DNA of 62,323 nucleotides, taken from Methanothrix sp. GTDB taxonomy: Archaea > Halobacteriota > Methanosarcinia > Methanotrichales > Methanotrichaceae. Under the pieces are notes generated by a model. That model did not search any database, had not been told where the DNA came from, and worked only from the letters and a program-made list of their open reading frames with translations. Below, piece after piece: positions 13,246 through 23,270 of the stretch. The position numbers and the translations under genes were made by a program. The stretch spans positions 1 to 62,323 of the forward strand of contig JAPKYD010000121.1 of the NCBI GenBank assembly GCA_026394475.1. Reading direction: 5' to 3'. Positions within the stretch are counted from its first letter, which is position 1; the number at the start of each line of letters is the position of its first letter.

Positions 13246-14265
13246 GTGAAGGTTTCCGCTGCCTTATTTATCATCCTGCTGGCCATGTTTCTGCTGGTTC
13301 CTGCAGCTTGGGCCCATGTGCCCATCATTCCGGAGGGCAATGAGAACATCTCTTCGGCCATGCACATCTCCGACCCTGGCAAGTCCTGGGCGATTTATGG
13401 CTTTCTGAGAGCTGAAGCAGCCCAGTACTACAGCTTCGACGTGGAGATGGGCCAGAAGATTTTCCTGTCGCTTCTCAAGTCCGCAGACCGGCAGGAGATG
13501 GATTTTCATCCGGAGATGGCGCTCCTGGGTCCTGGAGCGAAGACATCTGGCCAGCTGCCGGATCATGTGATTTTGCCCCAGAGCGCAAAGGACTTCGGAA
13601 TCCTGGCGATCGCTGGCAAGAACGCTTCAAGCGCCACCTATGAGCCCTTCGGACCCAGCAGCTACATCGAGACGGCAGTGCTGGACACTGCCGCTCCGGA
13701 ATCGGGCCGATACTATGTGGCCGTTTATGACAATGCGACTGCGGGCCATTATACTCTGACCGTGGGCAGCAGAGAGGAGTTCAGCTTTTCTGAGAGGATA
13801 ACCATGCCCATACGGCTCATATCCGTTTACCTCTGGGAGGGGCAGAGCCTGGGCATGATCCTCATCCCCTATTTGGCAGCTGAGCTTATAGCTATTCTGA
13901 TATTCTGGCGCGGCCCCAGGCGCACCGCGTTCCATCTTGCTGGTACTCTGGCCGGATTTCTCTTCCTGGCCACCAGCGCCTCCGTGTTCACCCAGATGGT
14001 CTTCAGCCTCACCCGCGCGCCCTTCGACCCTGAGGTTTATATCTCTCTGGCCGTAGCCGTTTTCCACGCCTTCCTGGGAGTGACCTGCCTGCGCCTGGCC
14101 AGCGGCGAAGCCGGGATACTACAGAGGGTTCTCCTGGCAGTCATCGGGACGACGGCCCTGCTGGCGGGATCGGGACTCATCATGGGACCTGTACTGGCGA
14201 TAGCCGCCAGCGTTCTGCCTTCTATGAGTGGCCCGGTTCTGAAAAATGCTTCAAACTTCGCTTGA
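13246..14265 (+). CDS. membrane protein with large exported N-terminal domain
   Basis: A 339-residue protein with a signal peptide (cleavage near AWA/HV). An extracytoplasmic beta-rich domain follows (residues about 25-185) that ends GRYYVAVYDNATAGHYTLTV, a pattern seen in pre-peptidase C-terminal (PPC-like) domains. Four to five membrane segments follow. The start is GTG 13246 with GGAAAGG upstream. It is transcribed divergently from the FAS1 gene, 109 bases apart, so the two surface proteins may share control. No specific family name is assigned; a role in sensing or anchoring at the cell envelope is inference. Confidence 0.7.
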   Translation: MKVSAALFIILLAMFLLVPAAWAHVPIIPEGNENISSAMHISDPGKSWAIYGFLRAEAAQYYSFDVEMGQKIFLSLLKSADRQEMDFHPEMALLGPGAKTSGQLPDHVILPQSAKDFGILAIAGKNASSATYEPFGPSSYIETAVLDTAAPESGRYYVAVYDNATAGHYTLTVGSREEFSFSERITMPIRLISVYLWEGQSLGMILIPYLAAELIAILIFWRGPRRTAFHLAGTLAGFLFLATSASVFTQMVFSLTRAPFDPEVYISLAVAVFHAFLGVTCLRLASGEAGILQRVLLAVIGTTALLAGSGLIMGPVLAIAASVLPSMSGPVLKNASNFA

Positions 14266-14311
14266 CTCTCGATAACTCGATGCTCTTTAGGATTGCCGGA
14301 AAAGAGGATAA

Positions 14312-14920
14312 TTAATCCTTGCCGAAGAAATCGTCCAGGGTGACTCCGTTCTTGTTCGGGACCAGCCTCAGCCCTGTTGCATCCTGGTCTCTCCTGGGCA
14401 TGCGGCGGCGAAAAGCTGCCGCGTTCTTGCGCAGAGGGCAGTACTGGCTGTCAATGTAGATCCTCCAGATGTCATGAGGGTCCCATCTTTCATCGGAGCA
14501 GGGCAAATTTGATCTCAATTGTTCCAGAGTATCGGCCATTCCTCTCCCCTGATCGTGCAGAATCTTGCCATCGAAGCAGATCGAGATCCAGCTCTCTCTG
14601 CCGTTCCCCAGCACTACTATCGTCTTTGGATTTCTTCTGGCAAAGTGATCGCAGACGTGGGCTCCTATCTTGTGCCTGGGCTTCAGATATCCGTAAAGGA
14701 CGTGTGGTCCAAGAGCCTTCAGCCTCACGAAGGCCTTCATCCTGTGCACCTCGGCCTGAACGCTGCAGACCATCTTTCTCAGACGCACCACCTCGACGTC
14801 ATGCGAGAACTCCAGGTCTTCCGCCACGAGGCCCTTGGCCCTGCCAAGCAGCCTTTCCGTGCAGTCCTCGTGGGCGGAGAGGTAAAAGAGAAAGTTTTCA
14901 GGAATCCTCACGCTGACCAC
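14312..14920 (-). CDS. DUF4130 / TIGR03915-type DNA metabolism protein
   Basis: A 202-residue basic protein that follows the radical SAM gene with a 13-base overlap. Pairs of this kind (a DUF4130 protein and a radical SAM protein with a C-terminal helix-hairpin-helix) recur in bacteria and archaea and are predicted to act in DNA repair or modification, sometimes with uracil-DNA glycosylase. Here the conserved C-terminal part is visible (DPHDIWRIYIDSQYCPLRKN, then arginine-rich RRRMPRRDQD). The biochemical activity is not established in the family as far as I know. The overlap implies translational coupling. Confidence 0.75.
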   Translation of the reverse strand: MVSVRIPENFLFYLSAHEDCTERLLGRAKGLVAEDLEFSHDVEVVRLRKMVCSVQAEVHRMKAFVRLKALGPHVLYGYLKPRHKIGAHVCDHFARRNPKTIVVLGNGRESWISICFDGKILHDQGRGMADTLEQLRSNLPCSDERWDPHDIWRIYIDSQYCPLRKNAAAFRRRMPRRDQDATGLRLVPNKNGVTLDDFFGKD

Positions 14921-16095
14921 ATCTCCAGAGTGGCGTCCCTCCAGCCATTGATCTTCAAAAAGGGAGCCGCCCTTTTGATCCTCACTCCCAAAGAGGCCAG
15001 CTCAGCCTTTCCGGCTATCGGCTGCCTCTGCCGGAGGGCCACTATCCTCTGGGCGCTGCGGGGCCCGATGCCCGGAACCCTCAGCAGCTCTTGGTAAGAG
15101 GCGATGTTTGGATCCACAGGCGAGTCCATCAGCTCCCGGGCGATGGCCATTTTGGGATCACTGTTCTGCAGAAAGCCGTTCTCGTCAAAGGCGTGCTCGA
15201 TCTCCTGGGGATGAAAGCGATAAATCCGGTAGAGCCAGTCCATCTGGTAGAGCCTGTGCTCTCTCCACATCGGCTGTGGCTCTCTATTCGCAAAGGGCGT
15301 GCCCTTCTGAGGGGAGAAGGCGCTGTAGTAAGCCCGCCGAACGCCGATCTCCTGGTACTCGTAAAGAACCCTCCGAAAGATCTCCTCGTCGCTCTCTTTG
15401 CCCGCACCCACCACGAGCTGGGTGGTCTGGCCTGCCGGCAGATTCGCCTTCGACATCAGGTCGCGGATATACCGCTGCCTCTGCAGGATATCGCTCTCAT
15501 AGTTCTTGGTGGCGCAGATCTCATTCATGTGGGAAGCCGAAGCCGCTTCCAGGTTTATGCTGACGCGATCGGCCAGCTCCATGGCTTCCTGGATGTGCGA
15601 GCGATCTGCTCCGGGCAGGACCTTGAGATGGATGTATCCATTGAAGTCGTGCTTTTCGCGCAAGATGCGGGCGGTCTCGACCATCTTTTCCATGATGCAG
15701 TCCTCATTTCGGCCCGAGCCGGAGCTGAGGAAGAGACCTTCGATGTAGTTCGATCTATAAAGCGAGAGGGTTATGCCCACCAGCTCTTCTGGGGTGTATG
15801 AGAAAGCCCTGGTCTTGCGGCTGCAGTTGGTGGCATTGGTGCAGTAGTTGCACTGGTGGCCGCAGTAATTGGTGTAGAGCGTCTTGAAGAGGCTGACGCA
15901 CCGGCCGTCGTGAGCAAAAGCGTGGCAAATCCCGGGAAGGGCAGGGCTCTGTGGGGAAAAGGTAGATGCGCAGACGTCGTGTCTGGTCCCCTCTCCCAAA
16001 GCGCCAAGCTTCTCCGGATCTATGCTGACCGCGGGGCCGAGGGAGTCGAACCTGCTCTCCTGGGCCAGGTGGGCCATCTTCTCCAGGGTGACCAT
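14908..16095 (-). CDS. radical SAM DNA repair/modification protein (TIGR03916-like)
   Basis: A 395-residue radical SAM enzyme. The cluster-binding motif is Cys78-x3-Cys82-x2-Cys85 (YCGHQCNYC), preceded by a conserved LFKTLYTN. The C-terminus carries a helix-hairpin-helix DNA-binding motif (LLRVPGIGPRSAQRIVALRQ). The combination is characteristic of the putative DNA modification/repair radical SAM family that pairs with DUF4130, encoded immediately downstream and overlapping. A TATA-like GTTTTAATC lies upstream of the start. Substrate and reaction are unknown. It could reverse a base lesion by radical chemistry as spore photoproduct lyase does, but this is inference. Confidence 0.85.
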   Translation of the reverse strand: MVTLEKMAHLAQESRFDSLGPAVSIDPEKLGALGEGTRHDVCASTFSPQSPALPGICHAFAHDGRCVSLFKTLYTNYCGHQCNYCTNATNCSRKTRAFSYTPEELVGITLSLYRSNYIEGLFLSSGSGRNEDCIMEKMVETARILREKHDFNGYIHLKVLPGADRSHIQEAMELADRVSINLEAASASHMNEICATKNYESDILQRQRYIRDLMSKANLPAGQTTQLVVGAGKESDEEIFRRVLYEYQEIGVRRAYYSAFSPQKGTPFANREPQPMWREHRLYQMDWLYRIYRFHPQEIEHAFDENGFLQNSDPKMAIARELMDSPVDPNIASYQELLRVPGIGPRSAQRIVALRQRQPIAGKAELASLGVRIKRAAPFLKINGWRDATLEMWSA

Positions 16096-16229
16096 CTTGA
16101 TATTAAGATGACCTCAGGGATTAAAACCAATTTGCCTGCAGGGCGAAAGTATCTGGAAGTTTTGATGGTAGATGTTTTAGGTCTTCTTTGAGGTCGATCT
16201 TCACCTCAAGTTGTTATTGCTCTTCGTCC

Positions 16230-17351
16230 TCACCCGCATCCTCCGGGCTCCATTGAATACGGCCTGTTCTCCCTCAGGCTCCATTCCAAATCAGCCAGCA
16301 GCGGCACGATCTCCCCCGTCTCCCGCAACTTTTGGGCCATAATCTCCGCCAGACTGCCCTGCTCGATGCGCTTTGCCACCACAGGCAGATAACGCTTCTC
16401 CTCCTCGGTGGCGCTCTTTTGCGCCACGGAGTAGAGTTTCTCCAGCTCCGGGCCCAGGCCAGCCACACCGTATTTCATGGCCTTTTCCAGGAGGGAGCGA
16501 AGCTCATCCTCGCCCACCTCCAGATACAGATCGCTCCGGAGCAGCGCCAGCAGGAAAGCAGCTATGGCCATATCCGAACGAAGGCACTCCTGCTCGTCAA
16601 TGGCCTTCACCTCCAGGCACTTCCTGGTGAAGCGCACAATCACGCCCCTTGAATTCACCCACTCCCGACAGAGGATGCCGGCATCGCGCTCCTTCAGCTG
16701 GGAATAGATCCGGCGATTGATCTGCACGTAGTCATCCACACTCTCCAGCTTTTCCGGGAGAATGCCATGGCAGATCTCGGGAATGTTGCGCTGGTTCTCC
16801 CGGTAATAGACCAGCCGGTTGTCCAGGTAAGACGTGAGCTTGCCTTCCACTATGGGAGAGGACGCAGACACGGCCACCAGGTACGGCATCAGCGCACGGA
16901 TCTTATTGAACATCGAGATGAGCTCCTCCTTGCTCTTGTAGGGTATGTTGATCTGCAGAGCCTGGATGTTCAGCCAGCCGTGCTGCCTGATGTTGAAGAG
17001 TCTGTCGTAGGCCTGGTAGTACTCCTGCTCATCGTCGTCCCAGCAGGCTGTCTGGTCCAAGGTCAGCAGAGGATGCATGCCCAGGCCCAGAAATCTGTGC
17101 TTGTAATTCGTGGCCCGGTAAAGCTCGATAAGGCCCCTGTAAAGATTCTCCTCCAGGAAATTCAAGGTTCCAGGCCTTGCCGGAATCAGCTCCAGAGCGT
17201 GCTTTTGCAGCTCCTTGGAGACCAGGATTCCTGCGAAGGCCACCTCGTGCTCCACCGCTCCGCTCAATTGCTCGATGATCCTGTCGGAGATGGGCAGCGG
17301 CCGAAAGCTCCGGTCGTTTATGGAGTACTCGTGCTCCGTGCCTATCGGCAT
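16230..17351 (-). CDS. GCS2-type glutamate-amine ligase
   Basis: A 373-residue protein of the glutamate-cysteine ligase family 2 fold (glutamine-synthetase-like carboxylate-amine ligase). The start MPIGTEHEYSINDRSFRPLP contains the characteristic GTEHEY motif for the metal and glutamate. LNIQALQINIPY and SASSPIVEGKLT follow. It is the last gene of an operon with a YkgJ-like protein (10-base overlap), a RimK-like ATP-grasp and a RLAN-domain protein. Related gene sets have been proposed to build small peptides or tag proteins by successive amide bonds. It probably ligates glutamate to an amine; the acceptor is unknown. True glutathione synthesis is unlikely in this kind of organism. Confidence 0.8.
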   Translation of the reverse strand: MPIGTEHEYSINDRSFRPLPISDRIIEQLSGAVEHEVAFAGILVSKELQKHALELIPARPGTLNFLEENLYRGLIELYRATNYKHRFLGLGMHPLLTLDQTACWDDDEQEYYQAYDRLFNIRQHGWLNIQALQINIPYKSKEELISMFNKIRALMPYLVAVSASSPIVEGKLTSYLDNRLVYYRENQRNIPEICHGILPEKLESVDDYVQINRRIYSQLKERDAGILCREWVNSRGVIVRFTRKCLEVKAIDEQECLRSDMAIAAFLLALLRSDLYLEVGEDELRSLLEKAMKYGVAGLGPELEKLYSVAQKSATEEEKRYLPVVAKRIEQGSLAEIMAQKLRETGEIVPLLADLEWSLRENRPYSMEPGGCG

Positions 17352-17848
17352 GGCTTCCAGTCCTTGAGCCTGATCTCCGCCACAAGATCAGTCTCCGGCT
17401 CCTCGATCCTCAAGATCTCCTCCAGCTCCTCAGGAGGCATGGCCTTCACCAGATCGACGATCTTCTCCACGGAAAGCTCGAACAGCCCATCGTAGGCCTT
17501 CCGGTTTGCCTTCAGAAACCTGACCATAGGGCAGATGCTCTCCCGCTTCAGGAAGATCTGCAGAATGGATCCATCCATATCGAAGGTGAATGGTCCGGCC
17601 ACGCAGGTCTCGGGCTTGAAAGAGTGAATGCTGCAATTACCGTCCTGGAACAGCACGCAAAAGCCATCCTGCTTCAGTCGCAACCGCTTGTATCCAGCAA
17701 ACTCCACCGCATCCGGGCTGACGCCGTTGGCCAGCAGTATGTCTATCCGCTCCTGGCAGAGGGGCGGCCTGGCCTCGAAGCAGCAGCCCCCTCCCAAGTA
17801 ACATTCGCCACAGGCCCTGCTCAAAGCTTCATAAAGGGAATCATCCAT
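17342..17848 (-). CDS. YkgJ-type cysteine-cluster protein
   Basis: A 168-residue protein of the YkgJ/UPF0153 cysteine-cluster (zinc- or iron-binding) family. The Cys residues are Cys13, Cys16, Cys22, Cys23 and Cys31 at the N-terminus, then CVLFQDGNCSIHSFKPETC in the middle. A helical C-terminal region follows. It lies between the ATP-grasp gene (39 bases upstream) and the GCS2 gene (10-base overlap), so it belongs to the amidoligase operon. Its role might be to bind a metal for, or modify, the peptide product. In other genomes this family is scattered and its function is not settled. Confidence 0.8.
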   Translation of the reverse strand: MDDSLYEALSRACGECYLGGGCCFEARPPLCQERIDILLANGVSPDAVEFAGYKRLRLKQDGFCVLFQDGNCSIHSFKPETCVAGPFTFDMDGSILQIFLKRESICPMVRFLKANRKAYDGLFELSVEKIVDLVKAMPPEELEEILRIEEPETDLVAEIRLKDWKPCR

Positions 17849-17887
17849 GGAAAACCATCTCTTGATAAAAAGAAAATGGATCAGAGT

Positions 17888-18916
17888 CTATCGCTCAGAG
17901 AAGTCTATCTTGTATGAATAGACTTCATTCTCCACCGGGGCATCCGCCTGGGCAAAGGTTGTGGCCGAGCCCAGGCCGTATTCGTCCTCGAAGCCGGGCG
18001 GCCCGTAGACCTGATCCGACAGCTCTTCACGATAGCAGGAAGCATCACCTGTCATCAGATAGGAGATGATCTTTCGGAACATGCCTGGATAATGGGCATC
18101 TTCGCCGCCCTCCAGAGAGGGGTTGTCGTTGACCTCGATGACGTAGAGCTTTCCGTTACTCTCCTTTATGTCCACTCCATACATGCCGCTGCCTATGGCG
18201 TTACCCGCCGCCATCCCCAGCTCTATCACCTCGGGCGGTACCTGATCGGCAGGCACGCTCTCCACATCGCAGTACACGATGTGCCCATTGACCGATGCCT
18301 GGATCTTGAAGGTCTCGGAGGGGATGATGTACCGGCAGGCGTAGAGCAGCTCTCCGCTCAAGACGCCTATCCTCCAGTCGAATCTGCTCTCGATATACTC
18401 CTGCACCACTATCCAGTCCGAGAGCTTGAAGAACCTCTTGGCGATCTTCAAGAGCTCCAAGACGGAAGATACCTTCTCCACCCGCACGGAGAAGGACGTG
18501 GACGGCTCCTTCAGCACCAGAGGTGTGCCCAGCTCCTCGAAGAGCTGGCAGGCGCTCCCGGCGTCCAGCTCCTTCTTCTTCAAGAACTTCGTCCTGGGTA
18601 TGGAGACGTTCTTCTTCATGAGGTGCATGTACATGTTTATCTTGTCGGCACAGATCTGGATGGAGCTGGGGTCGTCTATCACCGGTACGCCGTACATCTG
18701 AGCCATCTTCGCGGCCACGTAGGTCGTGTTCATGGGATCGGTGTTGGCGCGGATGAACAATGCGTCAAGCTTGGGTATTTTCTTAATGTCCACGGGGAAG
18801 ATGAATTCCACGGTGTGACCCATGCTCTCGCCCGCGTCCCGGCACTTGACCAGGGCCGTGAGCTGGGGAGAGCTGCTTAAAGTCTGTCGATTGACGAAGA
18901 TGCCTAGCCTACTCAA
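17888..18916 (-). CDS. RimK-like ATP-grasp ligase
   Basis: A 342-residue ATP-grasp enzyme of the RimK type. The nucleotide-binding region shows PLVLKEPSTSFSVRVEKV and VVQEYIESRFDWRIGVLSGE. The magnesium-binding end is YVIEVNDNPSLEGGED. RimK relatives join an amino acid to a carboxylate through an acyl phosphate. In bacteria the same enzyme is often fused to an N-terminal RLAN domain; here that domain is encoded by the gene just upstream, overlapping by eight bases. The pair probably forms one ligase. Together with the downstream GCS2 enzyme it suggests synthesis of an oligopeptide or peptide tag. Confidence 0.85.
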   Translation of the reverse strand: MSRLGIFVNRQTLSSSPQLTALVKCRDAGESMGHTVEFIFPVDIKKIPKLDALFIRANTDPMNTTYVAAKMAQMYGVPVIDDPSSIQICADKINMYMHLMKKNVSIPRTKFLKKKELDAGSACQLFEELGTPLVLKEPSTSFSVRVEKVSSVLELLKIAKRFFKLSDWIVVQEYIESRFDWRIGVLSGELLYACRYIIPSETFKIQASVNGHIVYCDVESVPADQVPPEVIELGMAAGNAIGSGMYGVDIKESNGKLYVIEVNDNPSLEGGEDAHYPGMFRKIISYLMTGDASCYREELSDQVYGPPGFEDEYGLGSATTFAQADAPVENEVYSYKIDFSER

Positions 18917-19562
18917 AGCCTTTCACCCTTTTATCCAGAAGGTCCTGCAACATTTCCGTTTCTTCCTTAGATAATTGCGAATACTTCACTGGCGCCAGGG
19001 AGGAGAGGCGGCAGTCGTTCTCGTCCTTGACCAGCACGATCTCCACCAGGGGCACCCTGAAGATCTCGTATATCCGCTCTGCGAGGGAAGATACTTTTTT
19101 GCAGCAGTTTATGGTCTTGCCGAAGATTGACACGCACTTGGCAACGGAGGAGGTGTCGGTTATCTTCTGATAGCAGAAGGGATACCTGCCCCGGTTGGTT
19201 ACGTGCTTGATGACCTTCTTCGCTTCCTCCAGATCGGCGACTATGAAGTGATCCGAGGGCGTGGAGAAGTAGTTCAGCCCGTAGACTATGGCCGGCAGCG
19301 AGACATACTGGTAGGAGATTATCCAGTCGCAGACCGGGATGCCTGCAAGCTTCGCCTTCTCCAGACAGATGGGAATGATGTATGCATCGAGCACGTCGCT
19401 GCTGCTGGGTATGGTCTTGATGCCTTCGTTCTCGCTCTTGACGATGGTGTAGTACGGCTCTGTCTTGTAGAAGTAACTCTCATTAACTATATATTGAGAG
19501 CCATCTTCCCTCAAGGTGTACATGATATCCTTCTTGGGAACATGATCTCTTCGTTTATTCAT
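18909..19562 (-). CDS. RLAN-domain protein (RimK-like ATP-grasp N-terminal partner)
   Basis: A 217-residue protein matching the RLAN domain that normally precedes a RimK-like ATP-grasp domain in one chain. Recognisable segments are the early EDGSQYIVNESYFYKTEPYY, the central PSDHFIVADLEEAKKVIKH and the late FRVPLVEIVLVKDENDCRLS. It is the first gene of the four-gene amidoligase operon and overlaps the ATP-grasp gene by eight bases, so fission of an ancestral fused gene is likely. The domain may bind the acceptor substrate. A TATA-like element is not obvious; the 5' region has only weak candidates. Confidence 0.7.
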   Translation of the reverse strand: MNKRRDHVPKKDIMYTLREDGSQYIVNESYFYKTEPYYTIVKSENEGIKTIPSSSDVLDAYIIPICLEKAKLAGIPVCDWIISYQYVSLPAIVYGLNYFSTPSDHFIVADLEEAKKVIKHVTNRGRYPFCYQKITDTSSVAKCVSIFGKTINCCKKVSSLAERIYEIFRVPLVEIVLVKDENDCRLSSLAPVKYSQLSKEETEMLQDLLDKRVKGFE

Positions 19563-19731
19563 TTAGATCATCACCGCTGGACCAGCGTGTGAGAAAATAG
19601 ACAGATTATGGAGAGCAAAGTCGCACTCGTTAGGTCCACTCTGAGGCGACATTGGGGATTTTCCTTCTTTCGAAGCCCAACGGTGTCGGCTGAGACTACG
19701 GTGCCTTTCCGGATCGGATGCAATTTCATTC

Positions 19732-19905
19732 TCAGAAATTTTGATCTCCTCTAGGGCGTATAGCTAGCTGGTAGTATTTATCTTTGTCGACCTGGGCATA
19801 AAGTCCGGCCTGCACATTTTCGCCAATGGCAAATTCTTTTAAAATCATGAAGTCTGCAGCCTTGCCCAGGAGATCCGCGCGATGAGAGCCGATGGCCGCG
19901 ACCGG
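19732..19905 (-). pseudogene. short open remnant, possibly a MoeA-like C-terminal piece
   Basis: After a stop at 19906 the minus strand is open for 57 codons without a usable N-terminal start, except ATG 19848, which would give 38 residues (MILKEFAIGENVQAGLYAQV...). The preceding GSHRADLLGKAADF and the AIGENVQAGLY segment faintly resemble the last domain of MoeA-type molybdenum cofactor proteins. The composition is protein-like, but no ribosome binding site is evident. It is a probable gene tail left by deletion between the YyaL-type gene and the amidoligase operon. Nothing else is seen in 19563-19919. Confidence 0.3.
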
Positions 19906-19919
19906 TTATCTCGGCCACG

Positions 19920-22019
19920 CTAGCCGGTTTTTTCCAGCAGATCGATCATCTTTTCCGGGTCAGTGATGGGCATCAGGCAGCGATGCCCGGAGCAGACGTA
20001 GGCCGTTGCTCTTCCTTTCAGCCGGACCAGGCTTTCTGTGAACGGAGCCATCTTGCCTATCTTGGCACCGGATACCACCAATACCACCTTGTTGGGGAGG
20101 AAGCGGGACCTTATGGCACTCAACATCTTCAATATGTCCCCGTCCTGCGAACTGCCCACCAGGGCTATCTCCAACGATGGTCCTAAGGCAAAGTCCAGGG
20201 CGCAAAGGAGCATAGAGTGGCCCATAGGCTGGCTGCAGGCGGCGCTGGAGAGGGCGCGAGCTATTCCTCGGGCCTTCTCCTCCAGGCCAGGGTCTCCTGT
20301 GAGACGGGAAAGCCGGAGAAGATTGAGCATGGCAGCCGAGTTTCCAGAGGGCACTGCACCATCATAAAATTCCTTTTGACGAAGCAGAAGGGTATCCCCA
20401 TCATCCGGGGTGAAGAAGAGGCCGCCTTTTTCGCCATCCCAGAAGTGCTGCAGCATGACCTGGTTCAGCTGCAGGGCCGCCTGGAGATAATTGACCTCGA
20501 AGACCGTCTCGTAGAGATCGATCAGGCCCCAGATCAGGAAGGCGTAATCGTCCAGGTTGGCCTGAATGCCTGCCTCGCCCCGGTAACGATGCAGCAGTCT
20601 CCCTTCAGGATTTCGCATCTTCTCCAGGATAAAGCCTGCCGCCCTTTGGGCTGCGGCCGCATATCTTGGTTCCTGCAAAGCTTGCGCCGCTCTGGAGAGG
20701 GCTGCTATCATCAGTCCATTCCAATCGGTGAGGATTTTGTCGTCTTGCAGGGGGCGAACGCGCTTCTTTCGGGCGGCAAAGAGCTTCTGCCTTATCTTCT
20801 CCAGCCGGCTCTGCAGCTCTTGCTCTGAGATCTTGAGGACCGCCGCAGCATCCTCCAGGGAAGACCGCAGGCGCAGGATGTTTCCGCCCTTCTCAAAGTT
20901 GCCATGCATATGCACGTCGAATAGCCTGATCATCATTTGCAGCTCTTCTTTTTCCAGGATTTCCCGCAGCTCCTCCGCCGTCCAGAGATAGAACTTGCCC
21001 TCCTCGCCCTCGCTGTCGGCATCCTCCGCTGTGCAAAATCCGCCATCGGAAGATGTCATGTCCCGCAGCACGTACTCCAGGGTCTCGCGGGCAGCTCTGG
21101 CGTACTCCTCCTTGCCCGTGGCCTGGTAGGCTTCCACGTAGGCAATAGTCAGAAGCGCCTGATCGTAGAGCATCTTCTCAAAATGGGGAATGAACCACTC
21201 CGCATCCGTGGAGTACCTGTGAAATCCGAATCCCACTTGATCATAGATGCCTCCTCTGCGCATGGCCTGCAATGTTGTCTCGACCATGGCCAGAGCATTC
21301 TCATCTTTGCTGCGCCGCCAGTAGCGCAGCAGAAAGAACAGGTTGTGAGGTGTGGGAAACTTGGGGGCAGTGCCGAAGCCGCCATTCTGGACATCGTAGA
21401 TGGAAGATAAGCCCACATAGCCCCGGGAAAGAAAGGATGCATCCAAATCCTTTGCCGATGCCCCTGAACTTGGGGCATCTCTCAGATTGTCCATGATCCT
21501 ATCGGCGGAGCTGATAAGCTCTTCCCGGTTGCTGCTCCAGAGATCTTTGATCCTGGGGATGAGCTCCATCAGCCCTGCCTGGCCGAAGCGACCATTTTTT
21601 GGGATGTAGGTGGCGGCGAAGAAAGGCCGCTTGTCCGGGGTCGTAATAATAGTAAGAGGCCATCCGCCCCGGCCGGTCATCCTCAGGGCAAGGGCCATGT
21701 ACATCTGGTCTATGTCCGGCCTCTCCTCCCGGTCCACTTTTATGCAGATGAAGGTCTGGTTCATCAGCGCGGCCACGTTCGGGTCCTCGAAGGACTCGTG
21801 GGCCATGACATGGCACCAGTGGCAGGTGGAGTAGCCCACGGAGAGAAAGATGGGCTTGTCCTCCTTCCTGGCCGCCTCAAAAGCGTCCTCGCCCCAGGGG
21901 TACCACTGCACCGGATTGTAGGCGTGCTGCAGCAGATAGGGGCTCCTCTCCGAGAGGAGACGGTTTGGCTGGAGCGCGGCTCCAGGTTCTTCTTTGCGGA
22001 AAATCGAATCTTCTGTCAT
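19920..22019 (-). CDS. YyaL/SSP411-type thioredoxin-domain protein
   Basis: A 699-residue protein of the DUF255/YyaL family. The N-terminal thioredoxin-like domain has [20 protein letters not shown] with a CxxC pair. A long alpha/alpha-barrel region follows that resembles N-acylglucosamine 2-epimerases and cellobiose epimerases (for example [20 protein letters not shown]). Its function is not firmly established; a sugar- or redox-related cytoplasmic role is usually suggested. The track's start at 22040 is a TTG; ATG 22019 with GAGGTG just upstream is preferred. A TATA box (GGATATAATTT) lies at about 22045. Confidence 0.85.
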
Positions 22020-22493
22020 CGCCACCTCATCGAGAATCAAAATTATATCCGAAACCTCGCGAATGCCCCATCAATCCTCTAAGAGGCTTTCCCATCTATA
22101 TGTATGGGGAGGCAGAAGCTTTAAATTTTTTCAATGCACGACCTCTTTTTCGCCACATCATATTAAAAATATTGAATATCGCGTTCCAATTCTTTTTGCG
22201 TTGATTCTTTATATTCCCGAGGGTGCGCCCCTCTTTGGGATTTCTTATGCAGAGGAAGGCCAGCTGATTGCAGTTGCGGTTCTGATGATGATCGATTGCT
22301 AAAAAATCAAATATATATTCAATTCTTCCCTAAAAATTGCAGAAAATAATAGCCCTATTCGAATTTTTAATCGCAAAATTTTCACATATTGCTGCCATGA
22401 CCATCTGAAACCATAAGAGACCTGCATACGATATATTTAATAAGCATTGAAGTTATCAACATATACAATTTAAAAAATAGGGGATGAAACAGC
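22020..22493. other. intergenic region with divergent promoters
   Basis: This AT-rich stretch holds the TATA box of the YyaL-type gene near 22045 (minus strand) and, at about 22428-22437, ATATATTTAA, a TATA candidate for the exported-protein gene at 22494 with a leader of about 35 bases. The ORFs drawn here by the track have low-complexity, unlikely translations. Nothing else is recognised. Confidence 0.5.
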
Positions 22494-23270
22494 ATGAAGG
22501 GAGTAGTAGTAGCGATAGTGTTAGCAGTCCTTCTTGGGTGCTGCAGCACAGGGCTAGCAACTCCGCCCATTGTACCGCCTGTACAGTATGAACAATTCTG
22601 TGAGAGCCAGAAGGTCTCAGGCACTGGCGTCATCGATGTAAGCACATCGATTGTCGACAAGAAAATTGCTCTGGAGTATTATAACGTCTTGGCTGGTGAC
22701 GGCGATCTGGAAATGAACCAGGAGAATGCCTACTCACAGAACGCAGATAAGCTCAGGAGAGCTATAACATCGGTCAATGGCGGCAAGGATTCCAATTTGA
22801 ATCTTTATGAGAACACCAAGCTGACTTACTCAGGCGCGACGCCCTTGGTTGGTGCAAAGTTCCTGAACTCGAAGGCCTTCTACGGGGGCCTCGGGGCCAC
22901 TGTGCAAGAGAACTTCGCGGTGAACGAGATGGAGAAGGATGAGACATCGTTCTTCACTTCGACCACGCCATACAACCCACCGTGCACTACACCAGAGAAA
23001 CTGATAAAGGACCTGAAAGACGCTGGAAGAGATACCGATAAGGTGGCATGCCTTATGGGCAATAATCCTGCGCAAGTGATAGGCCTGGAGGCCAAGAACT
23101 CCTTCAACGGCACATGGGGCACCGACGCTACATGGCACAAGATATTCTACAAGGATATAAAGGCCCATGAGCTGTTCTCAGGAACCTTCGAGACTGAGAA
23201 GACGATCAAATTCCACGACTACCCAGTGCCCGAAAAGGAAAAGGCTCCATGCGAGGGCATAGATTGCTGA
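22494..23270 (+). CDS. exported protein of unknown function
   Basis: A 258-residue secreted protein. The signal peptide is MKGVVVAIVLAVLLGCCSTG, with a lipobox-like end or cleavage after GLA. The mature part is hydrophilic, rich in Asn, Thr and Lys, and contains a C-terminal GTWGTDATWHKIFYKDIKAH segment and two late Cys residues (CEGIDC). No family is recognised. A similar layout, with GTYHIYKNI and paired Cys, is seen in the fragment at 10807, hinting at a family of surface proteins. It is followed after 83 bases by the Cys-rich exported protein. A TATA element lies about 60 bases upstream. Confidence 0.7.
   Translation: MKGVVVAIVLAVLLGCCSTGLATPPIVPPVQYEQFCESQKVSGTGVIDVSTSIVDKKIALEYYNVLAGDGDLEMNQENAYSQNADKLRRAITSVNGGKDSNLNLYENTKLTYSGATPLVGAKFLNSKAFYGGLGATVQENFAVNEMEKDETSFFTSTTPYNPPCTTPEKLIKDLKDAGRDTDKVACLMGNNPAQVIGLEAKNSFNGTWGTDATWHKIFYKDIKAHELFSGTFETEKTIKFHDYPVPEKEKAPCEGIDC

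What the first reader, a model, noticed from the sequence alone, without database searches (positions are those of the whole stretch)
16230..19562. Four-gene amidoligase operon: split RLAN/RimK ATP-grasp, YkgJ-like cysteine cluster and GCS2 ligase
A RLAN domain protein and a RimK-like ATP-grasp, usually one chain in bacteria, are separate overlapping genes. They are followed by a YkgJ-type Cys-cluster protein and a GCS2-type glutamate ligase, with overlaps or short gaps throughout. Two different amide-bond enzymes plus a metal-binding protein suggest a pathway to an undescribed peptide or peptide tag. Published genome surveys have predicted such amidoligase sets, but I know of no product for an archaeal version with a YkgJ partner.
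Basis: partly seen in the sequence, partly recalled or inferred. Interest (0 to 1): 0.75.

Follow-up and report, generated by a model that had tools for sequence, protein, structure and literature searches.

The report
Archaeal two-ligase peptide operon, product unknown
Four neighbouring genes in a methane-making archaeon, kept together in several archaeal families including Archaeoglobus relatives, encode two different amide-bond-forming enzymes, a partner subunit that looks like a dead copy of one of them, and an iron-sulphur-type cysteine protein; together they probably make a small peptide that nobody has described.

Summary
On the - strand at 16230-19562 lie RLAN, RimK-type ATP-grasp, YkgJ (CxxCxxCC) and GCS2 genes, with an 8-nt overlap, a 39-nt gap and a 10-nt overlap. 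The set recurs across Methanotrichaceae, Methanoregulaceae, one unnamed family and Archaeoglobaceae, and linkage mostly survives gene reordering. In 296 Halobacteriota genomes the GCS2 clade never occurs without RLAN (38/38), nor this YkgJ clade without that GCS2 (36/36). RLAN and RimK are separate genes at every archaeal locus examined but fused in the bacterial plasmid examples. A Legionella locus (fused RLAN-RimK, GCS2, N-formylglutamate amidohydrolase) is the nearest bacterial counterpart. Both ligases keep their catalytic motifs; neither reaches an NCBIfam cut-off for a characterised relative. The predicted RLAN structure has an ATP-grasp-like fold, apparently without catalytic residues, suggesting a pseudoenzyme-enzyme pair. 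In Methanotrichaceae a conserved upstream small ORF, in Methanothrix apparently AUU-started, abuts RLAN. Best reading: glutathione-like logic, two successive ATP-dependent ligations making a small peptide, with YkgJ as an Fe-S/metal tailoring partner. Substrates and product are unknown. It is a widespread archaeal variant of a known kind (linked amidoligases).

The parts
18909..19562 (-). RLAN protein (217 aa), predicted ATP-grasp-like fold, probably non-catalytic partner of RimK
   Evidence: PF14401 E=9.6e-10; orthologues 65-87% identical in Methanotrichaceae; AF2 pLDDT 87.7; Foldseek best hits ArgX/LysX/RimK E=3e-9, TMq 0.55-0.59; no sequence-profile support
17888..18916 (-). RimK-type ATP-grasp ligase (342 aa), TTG start inside the end of RLAN, 8-nt overlap
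   Evidence: PF08443 E=1.6e-9, TIGR00768 78 bits, below its cut-off; K136, D249, E261, N263 invariant from Archaea to Legionella
17342..17848 (-). YkgJ/CxxCxxCC cysteine-cluster protein (168 aa), eight conserved Cys (C13, C16, C22, C23, C64, C72, C82, C106) plus H75
   Evidence: PF03692 E=2.9e-7; conservation; AF2 pLDDT 86.8; no PDB fold match
16230..17351 (-). GCS2-type carboxylate-amine ligase (373 aa), a clade found only with RLAN/RimK in the genomes searched
   Evidence: PF04107 E=5.8e-39; E6, E8, E47, N135, E247, D252 conserved to Legionella; only plasmid-collection hit is the GCS2 beside RLAN-RimK in Legionella
19563..19739 (-). Conserved small ORF (58 codons), apparent ATT start, stop TAA directly before the RLAN ATG; contains RHRSLSRHR
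   Evidence: in-frame substitution score 1.92 vs column-shuffle null -0.05 +/- 0.53 (0 of 300), no stop in 22 distinct sequences, third-position entropy 0.73 vs 0.31 and 0.29
19740..19751 (-). Shine-Dalgarno-like GAGGAGATCAAA before the small ORF
   Evidence: Conserved as GAGGAGATCCAA in genus Methanothrix
19770..19782 (-). Conserved TATA-like element GATAAATACTACC, possible promoter of the operon
   Evidence: Conserved across Methanothrix leaders; role inferred

Best explanation
The locus is an archaeal biosynthetic module that makes a small, probably glutamate-containing, peptide or peptide-like metabolite by two successive ATP-dependent amide ligations, with the same logic as glutathione synthesis (a GCS2-fold ligase followed by an ATP-grasp ligase) but different enzymes. 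GCS2 would join the first carboxylate and amine; the RimK-type ATP-grasp would add the next unit. RLAN would be an ATP-grasp-like, catalytically dead subunit that pairs with RimK, as it does in cis in the fused bacterial proteins. YkgJ would be an iron-sulphur or metal-binding tailoring or redox partner, not needed in every lineage. Shown: gene structure, conservation, co-occurrence, conserved catalytic residues in both ligases. Predicted: the RLAN fold. Inferred: RLAN-RimK heteromer, order of steps, substrates, product, YkgJ's role.
For: Four genes linked across genera of Methanotrichaceae with the RLAN/RimK overlap conserved, in Methanoregulaceae and in Archaeoglobaceae in a different order. 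Presence in 296 genomes: RLAN 43, GCS2 clade 38, YkgJ clade 36, perfectly nested; RLAN occurs without the GCS2 clade in 4 Methanocellaceae genomes and in G109, and YkgJ is missing in 2 genomes that have GCS2 (p-values there ignore phylogeny). RimK and GCS2 trees recover the same family groups. Catalytic motifs are retained in both ligases down to Legionella. The RLAN model resembles ATP-grasp ligases in two libraries. Linked ATP-grasp and COOH-NH2 ligases are described as often catalysing successive ligations, glutathione among the examples (PMC4431377). FliB, whose CX4CX3CC motif its authors compare with PF03692, binds a [4Fe-4S] cluster (PMC8598068).
Against: No substrate, product or precursor is identifiable. 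RimK-family enzymes also modify proteins, so a protein target is not excluded. RLAN and RimK show no sequence-profile homology (hhalign probability under 1%), so the ATP-grasp reading of RLAN rests on a predicted model. Methanocellaceae keep RLAN-RimK without this GCS2 or YkgJ, so the ATP-grasp pair can work alone. The YkgJ Fe-S role is by analogy only.
Confidence: 0.5

Rival explanations
1. A protein-modification (peptide-tag) system: RLAN recruits a target protein and RimK adds glutamate or another residue, as RimK does on ribosomal protein S6 or LysX/ArgX on LysW; GCS2 supplies or caps the tag.
For: RimK-type ATP-grasps commonly act on protein or carrier C-termini (RimK on RpsF, quoted); the RLAN model's closest solved structures include ArgX with its carrier LysW; in Methanocellaceae RLAN-RimK stands without GCS2, and a gene read from its sequence as ribosomal protein S19e lies nearby.
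Against: GCS2-family ligases are known for small-molecule carboxylate-amine chemistry; no conserved target gene shared by all loci; YkgJ C-termini are not conserved, so it is unlikely to be a LysW-like carrier.
Confidence: 0.25
2. A RiPP-like pathway in which the small upstream peptide with the RHRS motif is the substrate of the amidoligases.
For: The small ORF is under coding constraint, abuts or overlaps RLAN, and is found in three lineages of Methanotrichaceae; ATP-grasp enzymes modify precursor peptides in graspetides.
Against: Not found in Methanoregulaceae, Archaeoglobaceae or Methanocellaceae, which have the ligases; the apparent AUU start and coupling to RLAN fit a leader or regulatory peptide equally well; GCS2 is not a graspetide enzyme.
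Confidence: 0.07
3. The RimK-like enzyme is an ordinary cofactor or amino-acid biosynthesis ligase (MptN, CofF, LysX) that happens to be linked to other genes.
For: Weak matches to TIGR00768, LysX_arch, MptN and CofF models.
Against: All far below curated cut-offs (LysX_arch 72.5 vs 275.6, MptN 67.5 vs 350, CofF 39 vs 300 bits); most of these genomes hold a separate, more distant RimK-family gene as well; strict co-occurrence with GCS2 and YkgJ.
Confidence: 0.05
4. GCS2 is a gamma-glutamylcysteine ligase making a thiol, with the ATP-grasp pair completing a glutathione-like thiol and YkgJ using or sensing it.
For: Fold pairing equals GshA/GshB; the only solved relatives found are plant glutamate-cysteine ligases; the anaerobic hosts and the cysteine-cluster partner fit thiol or metal handling.
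Against: GCS2 is below every GshA/YbdK cut-off; no sequence feature reads out cysteine specificity.
Confidence: 0.13

Closest known systems
Linked amidoligase operons (Iyer et al. 2009, Mol Biosyst 5:1636; not readable here, class described in PMC4431377)
   Same: Two amide ligases of unrelated folds (ATP-grasp and GCS2) in one operon
   Different: Archaeal, RLAN as a separate gene, YkgJ partner, wide conservation in Halobacteriota; I could not check whether this exact set was listed in 2009
Bacterial fused RLAN-RimK with GCS2 and N-formylglutamate amidohydrolase (Legionella adelaidensis NZ_LR134436.1, L143)
   Same: Same two ligase clades side by side (RimK 35%, GCS2 31-34% identical)
   Different: RLAN fused to RimK; an amidohydrolase in place of YkgJ; function unknown
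Glutathione synthesis, GshA (GCS2 type) plus GshB (ATP-grasp)
   Same: Same pairing of folds acting in succession
   Different: Not the GshA/YbdK clade by cut-off; RimK-type rather than GshB; RLAN and YkgJ have no counterpart
RimK/RimB and Rlo systems of Pseudomonas (PMC12239564)
   Same: ATP-grasp ligase in a conserved operon
   Different: Partner there is a retropepsin-like protease; no GCS2 or YkgJ
FliB flagellin lysine methyltransferase (PMC8598068)
   Same: Cysteine-rich motif (CX4CX3CC) that its authors compare with PF03692; eight conserved cysteines
   Different: FliB is a protein methyltransferase in bacteria; no activity is known for this YkgJ

Membership tests
Amidoligase operon with two ligase folds | ATP-grasp and GCS2-type ligase genes adjacent and conserved together | tested here: met
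Amidoligase operon with two ligase folds | Both ligases retain catalytic and metal-binding residues | tested here: met
   GCS2 E6, E8, E47, E247, D252 and RimK K136, D249, E261, N263 invariant; roles assigned by motif, not by structure
Amidoligase operon with two ligase folds | Successive ligations on one product | not testable with these tools
   Needs biochemistry
RLAN (PF14401) | Profile match above gathering score | tested here: met
   38.7 vs 25 bits, profile positions 80-149 of 150
RLAN (PF14401) | Fused N-terminal to RimK ATP-grasp | tested here: not met
   Separate genes at every archaeal locus; fused in L142-L144
ATP-grasp fold (for RLAN) | Structural similarity to ATP-grasp ligases | tested here: met
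   Predicted model, Foldseek E=3e-9, TMq 0.55-0.59 for the best hits; viral library likewise
ATP-grasp fold (for RLAN) | Sequence-profile homology and catalytic residues | tested here: not met
   hhalign prob 0.8% and 0.7%; no invariant Asp or Asn at the expected C-terminal strands (by-eye mapping)
GshA / YbdK carboxylate-amine ligases | NCBIfam cut-off | tested here: not met
   TIGR02050 48.3 vs 176.4; PRK13515 37.1 vs 371; gshA_cyano 26.2 vs 249
LysX / MptN / CofF / RimK equivalogs | NCBIfam cut-off | tested here: not met
GAK system ATP-grasp | NCBIfam cut-off TIGR04356 | tested here: not met
   13.3 vs 300 bits
YkgJ / CxxCxxCC (PF03692) | Profile match and eight-cysteine signature | tested here: met
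   31.5 vs 23 bits; eight Cys conserved
YkgJ / CxxCxxCC (PF03692) | [4Fe-4S] or other metal binding | not testable with these tools
   Only the FliB analogy
Graspetide RiPP cluster | Precursor peptide gene linked to the ATP-grasp in all loci | tested here: not met
   Small ORF found only in Methanotrichaceae

The most novel reading that the evidence does not exclude
Some Halobacteriota (Methanothrix, Methanoregulaceae, Archaeoglobaceae) make an undescribed peptide cofactor through a two-ligase pathway in which the ATP-grasp step is carried out by a heteromer of one active ATP-grasp (RimK) and one degenerate ATP-grasp (RLAN), with an Fe-S-type cysteine-cluster protein as tailoring partner.
Probability: 0.38. 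Interest if true: 0.8.

Novelty: new variant of a known kind. Interest (0 to 1): 0.55.

Why it matters
A conserved biosynthetic module without a known product lies in methanogens important for global methane and in Archaeoglobus relatives. It gives a concrete gene set, natural plus/minus genomes in one family and testable enzymes for finding a new small peptide or cofactor. If RLAN is a degenerate ATP-grasp, a Pfam domain without a known fold becomes understandable as a pseudoenzyme partner, in bacteria as well as archaea.

Tried and rejected
Assembly frameshift as cause of the split: rejected, the split recurs at all archaeal loci with differing overlaps. Known RimK-family cofactor ligases and GshA/YbdK: rejected by cut-offs. 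YkgJ as LysW-like carrier: unlikely, C-terminus not conserved. A precursor peptide between RimK and YkgJ: rejected, the spacer varies from a 4-nt overlap to 192 nt. Known RNA element upstream: no Rfam match in 14000-23000; the conserved leader proved protein-coding instead. Sequence homology of RLAN and RimK: not supported. YkgJ fold by PDB search: nothing. GCS2 in the phylum of the Zixiibacteriota genome: none, but without a positive control. Literature searches for RLAN/RimK/GCS2/YkgJ: no paper on this set; Iyer 2009 is not held.
Full report
What is there. Four genes run on the - strand: RLAN 19562-18909, RimK ATP-grasp 18916-17888, YkgJ 17848-17342, GCS2 17351-16230. Pfam places each above its cut-off. 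RLAN and RimK overlap by 8 nt, YkgJ and GCS2 by 10 nt, and 39 nt separate RimK from YkgJ. RimK starts with TTG. The window belongs to a Methanotrichaceae genome: the nearest relatives are named Methanothrix.

Conservation and linkage. Across genera of Methanotrichaceae the order RLAN-RimK-YkgJ-GCS2 is kept, with RLAN/RimK overlapping by 8 or 4 nt. Named Methanoregula, Methanolinea and other Methanoregulaceae MAGs carry the same operon. In the family I take to be Archaeoglobaceae the genes are rearranged: RLAN-RimK-GCS2-YkgJ, or RLAN-RimK convergent with GCS2-YkgJ, or with GCS2 on another contig. Linkage that mostly survives reordering argues for a functional link rather than inherited gene order.

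Co-occurrence. In the same 296 Halobacteriota genomes RLAN is found in 43 (36 by Pfam profile, plus 7 found by a profile from this family at loci first found by GCS2), the GCS2 clade in 38 (strong matches only) and the YkgJ clade in 36 (E <= 1e-20). The sets are nested: no GCS2 without RLAN, no YkgJ without GCS2. Fisher p-values near 1e-39 to 1e-44 do not correct for shared ancestry. Exceptions: four Methanocellaceae genomes and G109 have RLAN without the GCS2 clade; G099 and G115 lack this YkgJ, as do several Methanoregulaceae loci. The core is therefore RLAN-RimK-GCS2, with YkgJ usual but dispensable. Trees of RimK and GCS2 recover the same family groups, with Methanotrichaceae and Methanoregulaceae together apart from Archaeoglobaceae. 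One Zixiibacteriota genome has a split RLAN-RimK pair 51% identical in RimK, beside a gene that reads as a GNAT acetyltransferase.

Bacterial counterpart. Bacterial RLAN-RimK proteins on plasmid records are single chains. In Legionella adelaidensis the fused protein is followed by a GCS2-family gene and an N-formylglutamate amidohydrolase. That GCS2 is the only plasmid-collection match to ours (34% identity, E=9e-43). So RLAN-RimK with this GCS2 clade spans bacteria and archaea; the YkgJ partner was seen only in archaea, and the separate RLAN gene in archaea and the one Zixiibacteriota genome.

Enzymes. GCS2 keeps E6/E8 of the start motif, E47, N135 and the ExKxxD-type motif (E247, D252) down to Legionella. 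RimK keeps the ATP-binding Lys (K136) and D249/E261/N263. Both should be active; residue roles are assigned by family motif. No NCBIfam cut-off is reached by either. YkgJ keeps eight cysteines; FliB, with a motif its authors compare with PF03692, binds [4Fe-4S] (PMC8598068).

RLAN. Pfam calls it the RimK-like ATP-grasp N-terminal domain, and the PDB has no sequence relative. AlphaFold2 on 28 sequences gives pLDDT 87.7. Foldseek against the PDB lists 405 matches at E <= 0.001; the fifty shown are ATP-grasp proteins led by ArgX, LysX, PsnB and RimK (E from 3e-9, TMq about 0.5-0.6). The named matches at E <= 0.001 in the viral library are nearly all ATP-grasp proteins too. By eye the order of elements fits an ATP-grasp (DAYIIPICLEKAKLAGIPV as the helix before the ATP-binding strands, PFCYQK as the QEYI strand, the last two strands as the VDIKE/VIEVND hairpin), with the catalytic Lys, Glu and Asn replaced. 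Profile comparison finds no sequence homology, so this is a structural inference. It suggests a pseudoenzyme-enzyme pair, in trans in archaea and in cis in bacteria.

Small upstream ORF. The spacer before RLAN is conserved in Methanothrix. In one frame it encodes ISENE.ASDP.RHRSL.RHRR...SIFSHAG.AVM(I/F), ending at or just before the RLAN start codon in nearly all Methanothrix loci. Substitutions fit coding: score 1.92 against -0.05 +/- 0.53 in column shuffles (0 of 300), no stops in 22 distinct sequences, third positions most variable. In genus Methanothrix there is no conserved ATG/GTG/TTG; an ATT stands just after an SD-like GAGGAGATCCAA. The regular expression contains the ATT, so its conservation is shown by the alignment, not by that count. 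Another lineage (L068) has an ATG-started version, and a third (L139) a short KKHRSGVV version that runs into the RLAN start. It was not found in the other families, so it is an accessory leader peptide or small protein, not part of the core.

How it works, graded. Shown: a conserved, co-inherited gene set with two ligases whose catalytic motifs are intact. Predicted: RLAN as an ATP-grasp-like partner. Inferred: GCS2 then RimK build a small peptide, as linked ligases of these folds often do (PMC4431377), and YkgJ handles or uses a metal or Fe-S centre on or with it. I give this 0.5, protein tagging 0.25, a specific thiol version 0.13, RiPP 0.07, an ordinary cofactor ligase 0.05.

Novelty. Linked amidoligases are a known kind. 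The archaeal module with separate RLAN and YkgJ, its distribution, the RLAN fold and the AUU-type upstream ORF are new to me and to the papers I could search; Iyer et al. 2009 may have listed parts of it and could not be read.

Noticed in passing
window 19563-19739 (-), and upstream of RLAN in L041-L066: Conserved 43-60 codon ORF with an apparent AUU start after an extended SD, ending at or just before the RLAN start codon in nearly all Methanothrix loci; candidate leader peptide or small basic protein with the RHRS motif.
   Followed up: partly
window 19920-22040 (-): DUF255/YyaL-type protein (thioredoxin-like plus six-hairpin region) sits just upstream of the operon in nearly all Methanotrichaceae loci, but among the wider set was detected next to the module only at the Methanotrichaceae locus.
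   Followed up: partly
window 14908-16095 (-): Radical SAM protein with helix-hairpin-helix, close to the family linked to uracil-DNA glycosylase (TIGR03916 325 bits vs cut-off 343.5), downstream of the operon at several loci.
   Followed up: no
window 17888-18050 (-): RimK in Methanotrichaceae has a variable C-terminal tail of about 50 residues ending in a conserved YKIDF-like motif, absent from Methanoregulaceae and Archaeoglobaceae; possibly a docking motif.
   Followed up: no
window 16230-16250 (-): GCS2 ends in a CG-terminated tail (such as PGGCG or PGRCG) in genus Methanothrix and a near genus only.
   Followed up: no
L126, L127, L128 (Methanocellaceae): RLAN-RimK without GCS2 or YkgJ lies near a UPF0147-like gene, and in L126 and L127 near a gene that reads as ribosomal protein S19e; the UPF0147-like gene is also beside RLAN in two Archaeoglobaceae-type loci (L132, L141).
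   Followed up: no
L130, L131, L134, L138: An ArsB/NhaD-like membrane transporter abuts GCS2 in three Archaeoglobaceae-type loci and one locus of another family; identified from sequence by eye.
   Followed up: no
L073, L078, L091, L095, L137, L147: Methanoregulaceae RLAN genes appear to have long, variable, probably disordered N-terminal extensions beginning MN(D/N/S).
   Followed up: no
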